In this document: piece after piece, positions 6,756 through 11,545 of the stretch
Layout: every line of letters begins with the position of its first letter
Numbering within the stretch: the first letter of the stretch is position 1
Origin: Gemmata palustris
GTDB lineage: Bacteria > Planctomycetota > Planctomycetia > Gemmatales > Gemmataceae
DNA length: 64,000 nucleotides
Assembly: GCF_017939745.1 (NCBI RefSeq)
Contig: NZ_JAGKQQ010000001.1
Location: 2,976,001-3,040,000, forward strand
Reading direction: 5' to 3'
Translations under genes and position numbers: made by a program
Notes under the pieces: model-generated
Database searches by the model: none
Seen by the model: only the letters and a program-made list of their open reading frames with translations
Told to the model about the DNA's origin: nothing

Positions 6756-8247
6756 GAAAGGAGGTGATCCAACCGCAGGTTCCCCTACGGTTACCTTGTT
6801 ACGACTTAGTCCCAATCAGAAAGTCCGGCGTCGGCCGCGGCAAAGCGGACTTCGGCCGTCCCTCCCTTTCGTGGCTTGACGGGCGGTGTGTACAAGGCTC
6901 AGGAACACATTCACCGCGGTGTTGCTGACCCGCGATTACTAGCGATTCCGGCTTCACGTAGGCGAGTTGCAGCCTACGATCTGAACTGGGGTGCAATTTT
7001 GTGATTGGCTCCTGCTCGCAGTGGCTTCACTTTGTGTGCACCATTGTAGCACGTGTGCAGCCCTGGACATAAAGGCCATGAGGACTTGACGTCATCCCCG
7101 CCTTCCTCCGGTTTAACACCGGCAGTCCCTCTAGAGTGCTCCTTGCGGGTGGCAACTAAAGGTAAGGGTTTCGCTCGTTATGGGACTTAACCCGACATCT
7201 CACGACACGAGCTGACGACAGCCATGCAGCACCTGTACTCGGCTCCCCATTGCTAGGTTCGTTACCGTTCCGGCTCCTACTACCGAGCGCTTTCGCACAT
7301 GTCAAGTCCAGGATAAGGTTCTTCGCGTAGCCTCGAATTAAGCCACATGCTCCACCGCTTGTGTGAGCCCCGTCAATTTCTTTGAGTTTCAGCCTTGCGA
7401 CCATACTCCCCAGGCGGGGTACTTAGCATTTTAACTTCGACAGTAAACTCATATCTAGTCTACTATCTAGTACCCATCGTTTAGGGCTAGGACTACCGGG
7501 GTATCTAATCCCGTTTGCTCCCCTAGCTTTCGCGCCTCAGCGTCAGAAGAGGTCCAGCACGCCGCTTTCGCCACCGGAGTTCCTGTAGATATCAACGCAT
7601 TTCACCGCTCCACCTACAGTTCCGCATGCCCCTACCTCCCTCGAGGCCGTCAGTATCTGAGGCAGTTCCACGGTTGAGCCGCGGGATTTCACCCCAGACT
7701 TGACAGCCCGCCTACGCGCCCTTTAAGCCCAGTGATTCCGAACAACGTTCGCACGGTTCGTCTTACCGCGGCTGCTGGCACGAACTTAGCCCGTGCTTAT
7801 TTTTGGGATAGATCACACCTTGCGGCTTTTCTCCCCACTAAAGAGCTTTACAACCCGAAGGCCTTCATCGCTCACGCGGCGTCGCTCGGTCAGGCTTGCG
7901 CCCATTGCCGAAGATCCTCGACTGCAGCCACCCGTAGGTGTCTCGCCAGTGTCTCAGTGCGAGTGGCGCGGGTCGTGCTCTCACACCCGCTAGACATCTT
8001 CGCCTTGGTGAGCCGTTACCTCACCAACTAGCTAATATCACATGGGCCCCTCTGAGGGCGATGAATCTTTGGTCTCACGACGTCATCGGTATTACCCACC
8101 ATCTCTGATGGCTATCCCGAACCCAAAGGTAGGTCACCCATGCCTTACTGCCCCTTACGCCGGTTCCCCTTGCGGGATTCCCCGACTTGCATGCCTAATC
8201 CACGCCGCCAACGTTCGTTCTGAGCCAGAATCAAACCCTTCAAGTTT
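6756..8247 (-). rRNA. 16S ribosomal RNA
   Basis: On the minus strand it ends with the anti-Shine-Dalgarno GGATCACCTCCTTTC near 6757. It begins near 8247 with AACTTGAAGGGTTTGATTCT, the equivalent of the E. coli 5' end. Universal blocks are visible in reverse complement, such as GACGGGCGGTGTGTACAA at about 6879 and GGACTACCGGGGTATCTAAT at about 7490. The length is about 1,492 nt. It is the last gene of the operon, 312 bp downstream of 5S, which is unusual. Ends are estimated by comparison with E. coli and may shift by several bases. Confidence 0.97.
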
Positions 8248-8423
8248 TATTACACCGCACCACTCTCGCGGCACGGATCTTGTTGAGTTCAACCTGCCGT
8301 TGCTCGGTCCGATAACTCAATTTCTGTGACTTACTCGATCTCCGGTCCACGACCCTTGCGGGCCGTACACCGGTTCTGAACTCGTCAGAGGTCTTGGGTT
8401 ATCGCCGAACAATCGGCTCTAAC

Positions 8424-8456
8424 CCACCTCTTTGGCTTTCGCTTACAACTTGTCAA
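8424..8456 (-). other. 5' half of the pre-16S processing stem
   Basis: Partner of 6664-6697. On the minus strand it reads TTGACAAGTTGTAAGCGAAA and continues GCC, ending GAGGTGG. It overlaps the 3' end of the boxA element at 8450-8462. Confidence 0.78.
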
Positions 8457-8462
8457 AGATCA
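8450..8462 (-). promoter_or_regulatory. boxA-like antitermination element before 16S
   Basis: Minus-strand TGATCTTTGACAA resembles the rRNA boxA consensus TGCTCTTTAACA. An identical 13-mer lies upstream of 23S (11796-11808). The position, about 200 nt before mature 16S and after 5S, fits a NusB/S10-dependent antitermination site that resets the polymerase in the spacer. Confidence 0.7.
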
Positions 8463-8518
8463 CCTGTCGATCCGCCGAAGCGAGTCAGACAGTTCACTCC
8501 AGAGAGTGTATTAAAGAC

Positions 8519-8542
8519 CGGCTCACTGACTAGAGGAGCCGA
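8519..8542 (-). other. Weak stem-loop in the 5S-16S spacer
   Basis: GGCTC and GAGCC arms (about 8520-8541) form a short hairpin. On the minus strand it is followed by GGTCTTTAAT, so it could act as a partial terminator between 5S and 16S. The stem is short and the T-run broken, so this is only a possibility. Confidence 0.3.
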
Positions 8543-8558
8543 TCTAAATTTCAAAAGA

Positions 8559-8665
8559 GCCGGCGATACCTACTCTCGCGCTGGACGCACTACCATCGGC
8601 CCCGAGCGTTTCACGGCCGTGTTCGGAATGGGAACGGGTGTTTCCGCTCGGGTATGGTCACCGGC
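8559..8665 (-). rRNA. rrf: 5S ribosomal RNA
   Basis: The minus strand reads GCCGGTGACCATACCCGAGC at its 5' end and closes with GAGAGTAGGTATCGCCGGC. The ends pair as the 5S helix I, and the internal CCATTCCGAACACGG is the typical loop region. The length is about 107 nt. It lies 135 bp downstream of the 23S 3' end on the same strand, and 16S follows. Confidence 0.93.
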
Positions 8666-8723
8666 AAGCTGCTTAAAATCTACTTTAAGACGCTTCGAGC
8701 GACTTGTAATCGCTCTATGTATC

Positions 8724-8759
8724 GATGTCAACGTGGTGAAGCAAGTAGTCGCATCGGTG
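8724..8759 (-). other. 3' half of the pre-23S processing stem
   Basis: The plus strand here (TGTCAACGTGGTGAAGCAAG and on to GCATCGGTG) matches the minus strand of the 23S leader at 11771-11801, with the exact core TGGTGAAGCAAGT. The two would pair in precursor RNA on either side of 23S. Confidence 0.65.
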
Positions 8760-8800
8760 TCCGAACAGAGTTCGTTGTGACACGAGCGAGAAAGGGAACA

Positions 8801-11545
8801 ATGCGGCCAAACGTTCGGCTGTTAGTACCGGTTAGCTGAGTGCGTTACCACACTTACACGCCCGGCCTATCGACCTCGTAGTCTACGAGGAGCCTTCGCT
8901 TGCGCGGGATACCTGATCTAGGGGAAGTTTCACGCTTATATGCCTTCAGCGTTTATCCCATCCACACGTGACTACCCAGCGGTACGGCTAGCGCGCCATA
9001 ACTGGAACATCAGAGGTGTGTCCCTCCCAGTCCCTCGTACTAGGGAGAAAGCCCCGCAAGTATCCTCCGCCCACAGCAGATAGGGACCGACCTGTCTCAC
9101 GACGGTCTAAACCCAGCTCACGTACCACTTTCATCGGCGAACAGCCGAACCCTTGGGAGCTTCTCCACCCCAGGATGTGATGAGCCGACATCGAGGTGCC
9201 AAACCTCCTCGCCGCTATGAACGCTCAGAGGAGATAAGCCTGTTATCCCCGGAGTACCTTTTATCTGTTGAGCGATGGCCCTTCCATCCGGAACCACCGG
9301 ATCACTAAGGCCGACTTTCGTCCCTGCTCGTCCCATCGGACTCGCAGTCAAGCACCCTTATACCTTTACGCTCGATGCCCGATTGCCAACCGGGCTGAGG
9401 GTACCTTTGCACTCCTCCGTTACCTTTTAGGAGGAGATCGCCCCAATCAAACTGCCCACTTAGCACGGTCCCCGACGCTACACACGTCGGGTTAGAATTC
9501 AAACACAGCAAGGGTGGTGTTTCATCGTCGACTCCCCACGCACCGAAATGCGCGGTTCATAGTCTCCCACCTACACTACGCATGCTGGGTCTAAACCCAA
9601 TACCAAGCTGCAGTTAAGGTTCACGGGGTCTTTCCGTCTAGCTGCGGGTATGTCGCATCTTCACGACAACTACAATTTCACCGAGTCTCTCGTGGAGACA
9701 GTGTTCCGGTCGTTACGCCATTCATGCAGGTCGGAACTTACCCGACAAGGAACTTCGCTACCTTAGGACCGTCATAGTTACGGCCGCCGTTTACTGGAGC
9801 TTCGGTTGCGAGCTTCACCTTACGGCTAACCCTCTCCCTTAACTTACCAGCACCGGGCAGGCGTCAGTCTGTATACCGCGGCTTACGCCTTCGCACAGAC
9901 CTGTGTTTTTAGTAAACAGTCGCCAGAACCTTTTCACTGCGGCCCCCTCGCGGGGGCACTCCTTTCCCGAAGTTACGGGTTAAATTGCAGAGTTCCTTCA
10001 CGAGAGTTCTCTCGAGCGCCTTAGAATATTCATCTCACCTACCTGTGTCGGTTTTAGTACGGTTTCTCGCACGGTTTTCTCGGTCGGCTCGCGATGGATA
10101 TCGGGGTCTTAAGTGCCCTGAGGCAATCTAATAAGCCTACACCACCTTGAACCGACGTCCCGTGTTGTGCGAGGAGCGCAGGAGTATTAACCTGCTCCCC
10201 ATCCGCTACGCCTTTCGGCCTCGCGTTAGGCACCGGCTAACCCTGGGCGGATTTACCTTCCCAGGAAACCTTAGGTTTACGGCGAACGGGATTCTCACCC
10301 GTTTTATCGTCTACTCATTCCGGCATAATCACTTGCATGCGCTCCAGGGCTCGTTGCCCGTACCCCTTCACCGCACACGCTCTCCTCCTACCCGCAGCTT
10401 TCGCTGCCCACCGCTTCGGTGTCGTACTTGAGTCCGTTCATTATCGGCGCAGGACTCCTCGACCAGTCCGCTATTACGCGTTGTTTAAATGGTGGCTGCT
10501 TCTAAGCCAACATCCTGGCTGTCTCGGGAGTCCAACTTCCTTTCGCACTGAGTACGACTTCGGGACCTTAGCGGGTGATCTGGGTTGTTCCCCTCTCGAC
10601 GATGAAGCTTATCCCCACCGTCTAGCTGCCCGGACTGGTACACTGGTATTCGGAGTTTGGCTTCGACGGGTAGCCGGGTAGGCCCCGTTCGAAATCAGTC
10701 GCTCTACCCCCAGCGTCAACTATCCGAACGCTAACCCTAAAGTTATTTCGGAGAGAACGAGCTATCTCCACGTTTGATTAGACTTTCACTCCCCCCACAG
10801 CTCATCCCATCGGTTTTCAACCCAAATGAGTTCGGTCTTCCATGAGGTGTTACCCCACTTCATCCTGGCCATGCGTAGGTCACGTGGTTTCGCGTCTACC
10901 GCACCCAACTTAGCGCCCGTTTGAGACTCGCTTTCGCTTCGGCTCCGGGCCAGAGGCCCTTAACCTGGCTGGTTACGGTAAGTCGCCGGATCATTATGCA
11001 AAGGCACGCGGTCACCCGTTCCCTTGCGGGCATAGGGCTCCCACCGCTTGTAGGCATGTGGTTTCAGGTTCAGTATCCTCCCCTTATCGGGGTTCTTCCC
11101 ATCTTTCGCTCGCGCTACTAGTTCGCTATCGGTCACCAGAGAGTATTTAGCCTTACGGGATGGACCCCGCAGATTCGGACTCACTTTCACGTGTTGAGTC
11201 CTACTCAGGATACCACTCGGTCCTCGCTCCTGTCACATACGGGACTTTCACCCTCTATGGCGGGCCATTCCAGACCCTTCCGTTAGGAGCTCGGAATCCT
11301 AAATGTGGTCCTACAACCCCACGGTGTTACCCGTGGTTTGGGCTACTCCGCGTTCGCTCGCCGCTACTGACGGAATCGAGGTTTCTTTCTCTTCCTCCAG
11401 GTACTGAGATGTTTCAGTTCCCTGGGTTCGCTCGGGTATTCCGGGATCAAAGCTCGTTTGACAACTCCCCGGACTTTTCGCAGTCTTCCACGCCCTTTCG
11501 CCTTCTGGTGCCAAGACATCCCCACACGCCCTTACTAGCTTGGCC
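8801..11545 (-). rRNA. 23S ribosomal RNA
   Basis: On the minus strand the 5' end is GGCCAAGCTAGTAAGGGCGT near 11545 and the 3' end lies near 8801, just past the conserved GCTAACCGGTACTAA block. The estimated length is about 2,745 nt, slightly shorter than E. coli. It is the first gene of the operon, with about 470-560 bp of leader downstream of the predicted promoters. Ends are estimated by alignment to E. coli termini. Confidence 0.95.

What the first reader, a model, noticed from the sequence alone, without database searches (positions are those of the whole stretch)
6756..11545. Permuted rRNA operon: transcription order 23S-5S-16S
All three rRNAs are on the minus strand, with 23S first (11545 to 8801), 5S next (8665 to 8559) and 16S last (8247 to 6756), followed by a rho-independent terminator. 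The normal bacterial order is 16S-23S-5S. Planctomycetes are known for 16S unlinked from 23S-5S, but a close tail-to-head linkage with 16S last is a distinct layout. It would change rRNA stoichiometry and assembly order, since 16S would be made after 23S.
Basis: partly seen in the sequence, partly recalled or inferred. Interest (0 to 1): 0.72.

Follow-up and report, generated by a model that had tools for sequence, protein, structure and literature searches.

The report
Ribosomal RNA operon in permuted order
In this relative of the bacterium Gemmata the ribosomal RNA genes stand in the order large-5S-small instead of the usual small-large-5S, and sequence signals suggest that they are still made as one transcript, an arrangement shared by several related species.

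Summary
The window carries full-length 23S, 5S and 16S genes on the minus strand in the transcription order 23S-5S-16S, with 311 bp between 5S and 16S. It is not an assembly error: the same order with a 255-327 bp gap recurs in other Gemmataceae genomes, in all 10 loci in 6 genomes (window included) plus one contig-edge case in a seventh.

The same genomes hold solo 16S and solo 23S-5S loci, built-in controls. All 10 solo 16S copies scored in these and closely related genomes have a strong promoter; none of the 10 permuted spacers has. All 11 solo 5S copies scored are followed at once by an intrinsic terminator; 8 of 10 permuted 5S genes have none within 110 nt, and the 2 rule matches are weaker and start 61-66 nt on. 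The permuted spacer folds like transcribed leaders and unlike non-transcribed flanks. I read it as a co-transcribed permuted operon; transcription was not measured. In the 5 loci found with 16S before 23S, a terminator and a promoter-like site stand between them.

The stoichiometry claim is untested. The window's rRNA copies carry indels typical of sequencing error. Verdict: real, conserved, new variant of a known kind.

The parts
12107..12135 (-). upstream promoter-like site P1: TTGACG, 17 bp, TAAGTT
   Evidence: read by eye; the same two hexamers with 17-bp spacing are the best promoter match upstream of 23S in relative G010 L039, but there shuffles do as well in 38%
12022..12049 (-). downstream promoter-like site P2: TTGACG, 16 bp, TATCAT, with TG before the second hexamer
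   Evidence: score 9.75, none of 60 simple shuffles as good
11796..11805 (-). boxA-like motif TCTTTGACAA in the 23S leader
   Evidence: boxA as an antitermination site is recalled from E. coli, not tested
11781..11800 (-). 5' arm of the presumed 23S processing stalk
   Evidence: complementary to 8746-8727 (by eye; duplex of the two flanks z -3.9)
8803..11545 (-). 23S rRNA gene
   Evidence: RF02541, 2458 bits
8727..8746 (-). 3' arm of the presumed 23S processing stalk
8558..8665 (-). 5S rRNA gene
   Evidence: RF00001, 79 bits; identical to the own solo 5S
8515..8545 (-). spacer hairpin 1, not matched by the terminator rule
8495..8508 (-). spacer hairpin 2
   Evidence: absent in G035
8464..8492 (-). 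spacer hairpin 3
8450..8459 (-). boxA-like motif TCTTTGACAA before 16S
   Evidence: such a motif also precedes 33 of 33 other family 16S loci scored, so it is not specific to the permuted layout
8434..8452 (-). 5' arm of the presumed 16S processing stalk
   Evidence: complementary to 6686-6668 (by eye; duplex of the two flanks z -5.1)
6757..8246 (-). 16S rRNA gene
   Evidence: RF00177, 1380.7 bits
6668..6686 (-). 3' arm of the presumed 16S processing stalk
6626..6655 (-). intrinsic terminator

Best explanation
This is a real permuted rRNA operon. Transcription most likely starts at one or two promoters at 12135-12022 and passes a boxA-type site into 23S and 5S. It then runs without termination through a 311-nt spacer with three hairpins and a second boxA-like site into 16S, and stops at the terminator at 6655-6626. 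Each large rRNA carries its own boxA-like site and its own processing stalk, so the 23S-5S and 16S modules can be joined in either order and still be cut out of one precursor. The layout is found in one clade of Gemmataceae, next to the solo 16S and solo 23S-5S units. SHOWN: order, conservation, absence of a solo-type 16S promoter and of a solo-type 5S terminator at the junction, and stable folding of the spacer. INFERRED: one transcript, antitermination by boxA, and processing by RNase III.
For: (1) 23S-5S-16S in 10 loci of 6 genomes (G000, G010 x2, G011 x4, G026, G022, G087) plus 5S-16S at a contig edge in G035; gaps 255-327 bp. (2) In 10 of 10 permuted loci (7 distinct spacer sequences) the best promoter score is 8.75 or less, reached by 10% or more of simple shuffles, or there is no match; 10 of 10 solo 16S copies scored (G000, G009, G010, G011, G016, G017, G023, G024, G026, G087) score 10-11 with TTGAC[AG]-N16/17-TAT[CT]AT. 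(3) A terminator directly follows 11 of 11 solo 5S copies by rule, and 9 of 9 further non-permuted 5S copies read by eye have a terminator-like hairpin; 8 of 10 permuted loci have no rule match within 110 nt and the 2 others only at hairpin 3, 61-66 nt on. (4) The 5S-to-boxA spacer folds more stably than dinucleotide shuffles: mean z -3.48 (n=7), like solo 16S leaders (-3.05, n=10), unlike sequence beyond solo 5S terminators (+0.23, 22 segments of 11 loci) or upstream of solo promoters (-0.53, n=5); z -2.8 to -5.0 in 8 of 8. (5) Permuted and other 16S copies are identical in G010, G011, G026 and G087. (6) The flanks of 16S and 23S are complementary in 10 of 10 loci (16S z -2.5 to -5.9, 23S z -1.9 to -4.1; simple shuffles).
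Against: No RNA data. A -10-like TACACT with a 4-of-6 -35 is the best match in 6 of 10 spacers (3 of 7 distinct sequences), and G026's spacer scores 8.75, so a weak 16S promoter cannot be excluded. The two terminator-rule matches in permuted spacers (G022, G087; hairpins of -14.7 and -14.3 kcal/mol with 4 T in 7) could act as weak terminators. The promoter rule is not universal: of 33 further family 16S loci scored, 22 reached 9.5 and 11 did not (at least 8 of the 33 rows repeat a copy scored elsewhere). Upstream of the permuted 23S genes the promoter match is clear in the window and G022 but weaker elsewhere (scores 8.0-10, simple shuffles as good in 0-38%). boxA precedes solo 16S copies too, so it does not by itself show read-through. 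G087 lacks the boxA pattern in the 23S leader. The window's indels cannot be told from real mutations without reads.
Confidence: 0.75

Rival explanations
1. Two independent transcription units that lie tail to head: 23S-5S ends by a factor-dependent or weak hairpin signal, and 16S starts from a cryptic promoter in the 311-bp spacer.
For: A weak TACACT site is the best promoter match in 6 of 10 spacers, and two spacers match the terminator rule 61-66 nt behind 5S. All other same-strand rRNA neighbours read in the family are separated by a terminator and, before 23S, a promoter-like site (5 canonical-order loci in G011, G074 and G051; G074 L056 has a 5S terminator but no promoter match).
Against: No terminator of the solo kind after the permuted 5S. 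No match to the promoter used by solo 16S copies in the same genomes. The TACACT letters are not kept in G022 and G087 while a hairpin at that place is. The spacer folds like transcribed RNA.
Confidence: 0.18
2. Assembly artefact: two repeats wrongly joined.
For: The window's rRNA copies hold indels, and a 16S-bearing 8.95-kb contig remains unplaced.
Against: Same order in other genomes, three of them single-contig (G010, G011, G087). The roughly 95 bp between the two parts that match the solo copies is not part of either own solo unit and has a similar folded form in other genomes. The flank upstream of 23S is shared with G010 L039.
Confidence: 0.02
3. A silent or decaying duplicate: the permuted copy contributes little or no rRNA, and the solo units make nearly all of it.
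For: Solo-type units coexist in 5 of the 6 genomes for 16S (in G011 the 16S at 1.24 kb before a permuted operon is counted) and in 6 of 6 for 23S-5S. The window copy has 9 and 21 indel bases in 16S and 23S.
Against: In G010, G011, G026 and G087 the permuted 16S is identical to the others, and stalks and terminators are kept (the 16S terminators of G011 missed the rule and were read by eye). In G022 the permuted 16S is the only one found, though contig C4 starts near a 16S promoter-like stretch, so another copy may lie in a gap. Identity can also be kept by gene conversion.
Confidence: 0.05

Closest known systems
Canonical bacterial rrn operon (16S-23S-5S)
   Same: Same three genes on one strand, promoter-like sites in the leader, boxA-like sites before each large rRNA, complementary flanks, terminator at the end.
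   Different: Order is 23S-5S-16S; 16S would be transcribed last; no tRNA in the spacer.
Unlinked rRNA genes (solo 16S; 23S-5S operon), reported from Planctomycetes and Thermus
   Same: The other two rRNA loci found in this genome are of this kind and share the 23S-5S and 16S module sequences.
   Different: Here the two modules are joined 311 bp apart without the terminator and promoter of the solo copies.
Adjacent but separately built rRNA units in the same family (G074, G051, G011 L047)
   Same: rRNA modules next to each other on one strand.
   Different: There a terminator follows the upstream module and, before 23S, a promoter-like site precedes the downstream one.
Rearranged enterobacterial operons (16S-23S-5S-5S, 16S-23S-23S-5S)
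   Same: Unusual operon content attributed to recombination (PMC4522980 and PMC2897811, passages seen).
   Different: Those keep 16S first.

Membership tests
Bacterial rRNA (rrn) operon, canonical | 16S, 23S and 5S on one strand within a few hundred bp | tested here: met
   gaps 137 bp (23S-5S) and 311 bp (5S-16S)
Bacterial rRNA (rrn) operon, canonical | order 16S-23S-5S | tested here: not met
   order 23S-5S-16S; so not filed as a canonical operon
Bacterial rRNA (rrn) operon, canonical | promoter upstream of the first gene, terminator after the last, none between | tested here: met
   window: (sequence signals only)
Bacterial rRNA (rrn) operon, canonical | boxA-type antitermination site | tested here: inconclusive
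   motif present before 23S and before 16S in the window; function recalled from E. coli, not tested
Bacterial rRNA (rrn) operon, canonical | complementary stalks around 16S and 23S for processing | tested here: met
   (complementarity only; cleavage not tested)
Bacterial rRNA (rrn) operon, canonical | single primary transcript | not testable with these tools
   no RNA data held
Unlinked rRNA genes | 16S and 23S separated by more than 1500 bp (cut-off in passages of PMC7761764 and PMC11261877) | tested here: not met
   23S end to 16S start is 556 bp; the genome's other rRNA loci do meet it

The most novel reading that the evidence does not exclude
In one clade of Gemmataceae the only transcriptional coupling between 16S and 23S is in permuted order: the 23S-5S-16S operon is read as one RNA with 16S last, while 16S copies that lie before 23S in this family are uncoupled by a terminator and a new promoter. 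Distance-and-order based surveys would then have it backwards for this family, calling co-transcribed permuted operons unlinked and uncoupled canonical neighbours linked.
Probability: 0.6. Interest if true: 0.68.

Novelty: new variant of a known kind. Interest (0 to 1): 0.57.

Why it matters
Bacterial rRNA order is usually taken as 16S-23S-5S, and planctomycetes are known for unlinked genes. A conserved permuted operon would show that rRNA modules (boxA, stalk, rRNA, stalk) can be reordered, and gives natural material, with solo and fused copies in one cell, to test whether transcription order matters for ribosome assembly, antitermination over 5 kb and rRNA balance. The survey and the database whose rules I saw in passages (PMC7761764, PMC11261877) accept only the 16S-then-23S order, so by those rules such loci would not be counted as operons; amplicons running from 16S into 23S would miss them too (inference).

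Tried and rejected
Misassembly: rejected by other genomes. Mobile DNA at the junction: no repeat was found in window 8240-8690; not tested further. boxA as proof of co-transcription: rejected, since a boxA-like motif stands before 33 of 33 other family 16S loci scored. MAFFT alignment of the hairpin segment: 47% mean identity, hairpins misaligned, so I did not count covariation and make no covariation claim; I folded each sequence separately. Its silence on other phyla means nothing. Class survey by pattern: 7 of 68 Gemmataceae genomes and 3 of 329 others; the reversed control pattern matched 13 of 397 by my count; the 3 others show no rRNA at the match. The pattern is tuned to this clade. Check outside the family: of 40 genomes I chose, mostly with few contigs, 30 had a 16S match. 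For 18 of these, 5S rows were still listed (for G165 one of three), and 0 of 18 had 5S closely followed by 16S: 6 have 16S then 5S about 3.7 kb on, as in canonical operons, and 12 are unlinked. The other 12 could not be judged because the 5S listing was cut. In one search only 3 candidates per genome were scored, so its 16S copy counts are lower bounds (fetching showed 5 copies in G011). Flanking genes show that the solo 16S site (purQ- and tsf-like genes on one side, an M1 peptidase on the other) and the solo 23S-5S site are shared across the genus, and that copies have exchanged flanks; how the permuted junction arose was not settled. No structure prediction was run.
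Full report
WHAT IS THERE. Rfam models find full-length 23S (11545-8803), 5S (8665-8558) and 16S (8246-6757) on the minus strand, in that transcription order, with no tRNA in the window and a strong terminator-like hairpin at 6655-6626. Upstream of 23S lie two promoter-like sites, at 12135-12107 (read by eye) and 12049-12022. In the own genome (9.23 Mb, 3 contigs) one more 16S was found, on the 8.95-kb contig C3, and one more 23S-5S pair at C1:4272432-4275444. Sequence shared with the solo 23S-5S ends right after 5S (window 8554), and sequence shared with the solo 16S begins at the boxA-like site (window 8459), leaving about 95 bp that belong to neither solo unit.

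IT IS NOT AN ASSEMBLY ERROR. I compared 5S and 16S positions in 95 genomes of the family (53 gave a 16S match and 57 a 5S match) and fetched rRNA loci by place from 14 of them besides the own one. 23S-5S-16S with a 5S-16S gap of 255-327 bp occurs in G000 (window), G010 (2 loci), G011 (4), G026 (1), G022 (1) and G087 (1; another genus), and 5S-16S in the same form at a contig edge in G035 (a third genus). Of the 11 family genomes in at most 20 contigs, 6 have it (G000, G010, G011, G022, G026, G087). In four it was not found (G006, G051, G071, G074; G074 has a 16S 1.4 kb behind 5S, with a terminator-like hairpin between). One cannot be judged (G009: 16S incomplete, 23S at a contig end). Drafts rarely resolve rRNA repeats, so their silence means little. 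A pattern made from this junction matched 7 of 68 family genomes and 3 of 329 other genomes of the class; the 3 others show no rRNA there. On a 16S tree of 33 family members the seven permuted genomes lie inside one well-supported clade of 17, with two that lack the layout and eight undetermined, so at least two changes are needed. G000 and G010 share the upstream flank of a permuted locus.

ONE TRANSCRIPT OR TWO. Solo copies give the control. All 10 solo-type 16S copies scored (nine genomes of the genus and G087; the one of G011 lies 1.24 kb before a permuted operon) have TTGAC[AG]-N16/17-TAT[CT]AT upstream, scores 10-11, none of 60 simple shuffles as good. The 10 permuted spacers score 6.5-8.75 or nothing, and 10-77% of shuffles do as well. 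All 11 solo 5S copies scored are followed, starting 8-10 nt on, by a hairpin and T-run, and 9 further non-permuted 5S copies from G006, G051, G071 and G074, read by eye, have a terminator-like hairpin too (the T-run in G006 is weak). Of the 10 permuted loci 8 have no rule match within 110 nt; in G022 and G087 the rule matches the third hairpin, starting 66 and 61 nt on, with four T's. What stands directly behind the permuted 5S is a hairpin without a T-run, then one or two more hairpins, then the boxA-like site. Folding z-scores of this stretch average -3.48 (n=7 distinct sequences), as do leaders of solo 16S (-3.05, n=10, range -6.09 to -0.87), but not sequence past the solo 5S terminators (+0.23, 22 segments from 11 loci) or upstream of solo 16S promoters (-0.53, n=5 of 10, those with 60 nt or more). 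The natural reading is that the spacer is transcribed from 5S into 16S.

AGAINST THIS. There are no RNA data. In 6 of 10 spacers the best match is TACACT with a poor -35; it overlaps the second hairpin and its letters are not kept in G022 and G087, but a weak promoter remains possible, and the third hairpin might terminate weakly in G022 and G087. Promoter matches upstream of the permuted 23S genes are clear in the window and G022 but weaker elsewhere (scores 8.0-10; shuffles as good in 0-38%). In the wider family the 16S promoter score is less clear-cut: 22 of 33 further 16S loci reach 9.5, 11 do not (at least 8 of the 33 rows repeat a copy scored elsewhere). The boxA-like motif stands before 33 of 33 of these 16S loci, so it is not evidence of read-through by itself.

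HOW IT WOULD WORK. Both large rRNAs have complementary flanks in 10 of 10 permuted loci (16S duplex z -2.5 to -5.9; 23S z -1.9 to -4.1; simple shuffles), in the window with cores 8452-8434 with 6686-6668 for 16S and 11800-11781 with 8746-8727 for 23S (by eye). A boxA-like site lies before 16S in 10 of 10 and before 23S in 9 of 10. From general knowledge of E. coli (recalled), boxA recruits the rRNA antitermination complex and RNase III cuts the stalks. Each module thus carries what it needs, whatever the order. Permuted and other 16S copies are identical in G010, G011, G026 and G087; 23S copies are identical in G010, G026 and G022 and differ by 1-16 substitutions in G011 and 9 in G087, with a few gaps. 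So the permuted copies are kept up, perhaps by gene conversion. Copy number stays balanced in the window's genome: 2 copies found of each gene.

A CONTRAST WITHIN THE FAMILY. In the five fetched loci where 16S precedes 23S on one strand (G011 L047, 1240 bp; G074 L057 and L059, 1277 bp; G051 L061 and L062, 616 bp), a hairpin with a T-run (by eye) follows 16S and a TTGAC-type promoter-like site stands before the 23S boxA. Of the same-strand junctions between 16S and 23S-5S that I read, only the permuted one lacks a solo-type terminator and a promoter both.

KNOWN OR NOT. Full-text searches of the open PMC library for '23S-5S-16S', for unlinked rRNA genes in Planctomycetes or Gemmata, for unusual, permuted or reversed orders and for older rrn work listed nothing that describes this layout. 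From passages only: PMC7761764 pairs 16S with a following 23S and treats other copies as single; PMC11261877 requires the order 16S-ITS-23S; PMC8172020 lists types of placement in CPR genomes without this one; PMC4072686 reports solo 16S and 23S-5S in Fimbriimonas; PMC4522980 and PMC2897811 report 16S-first variants; PMC12864880 reports adjacent duplicated sets in Planctomicrobium; PMC12603096 states that many planctomycetal species have unlinked genes; PMC4672568 and PMC10817699 gave rRNA counts for Gemmata species. Brewer 2020 is not held, and Menke 1991 on Gemmata rrn organisation was seen only as a citation; both could bear on priority. Most subscription papers were out of reach, so novelty is not proven.

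VERDICT. Observation confirmed; operon reading likely (0.75); a conserved new variant of the rrn operon; consequences for stoichiometry open.

Noticed in passing
window 6592-11834: The window's rRNA copies carry indels (16S: 9 missing bases and no substitution against the own second copy; 23S: 17 missing, 4 extra, 1 substitution), mostly in homopolymers: likely uncorrected long-read error, so these letters should not be used for taxonomy.
   Followed up: yes
L007 (own contig C3, 8950 bp): A solo 16S with its own promoter plus a tRNA-Met on a short unplaced contig whose end ORFs look like transposases (by eye, not tested).
   Followed up: partly
L047 2250-9755 (G011): 16S, 1.24 kb, 23S-5S, 315 bp, 16S on one strand: a permuted operon directly behind a 16S unit with its own promoter and terminator.
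   Followed up: partly
L061 6017-6632 and L062 6141-6756 (G051), L057 6258-7534 and L059 7810-9086 (G074): Canonical-order 16S and 23S separated by a terminator-like hairpin and a promoter-like site: near each other but apparently not co-transcribed.
   Followed up: partly
L067 upstream of 16S (G009): The 16S leader seems to join the solo-type promoter to the last part of the permuted-type spacer (by eye): recombination between solo and permuted copies, or an assembly mix.
   Followed up: no
L048 5603-8695, L050, L072, L076: 23S genes of G026, G024 and G016 span about 3.1 kb instead of 2.75 kb in the mapping: an insertion of roughly 340-375 bp, perhaps an intervening sequence or intron.
   Followed up: no
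L198, L199 (own genome): The old 16S site is broken up: the purQ-like side and the M1-peptidase side lie 2.8 Mb apart, and no rRNA was found in the stretches fetched beside either.
   Followed up: partly
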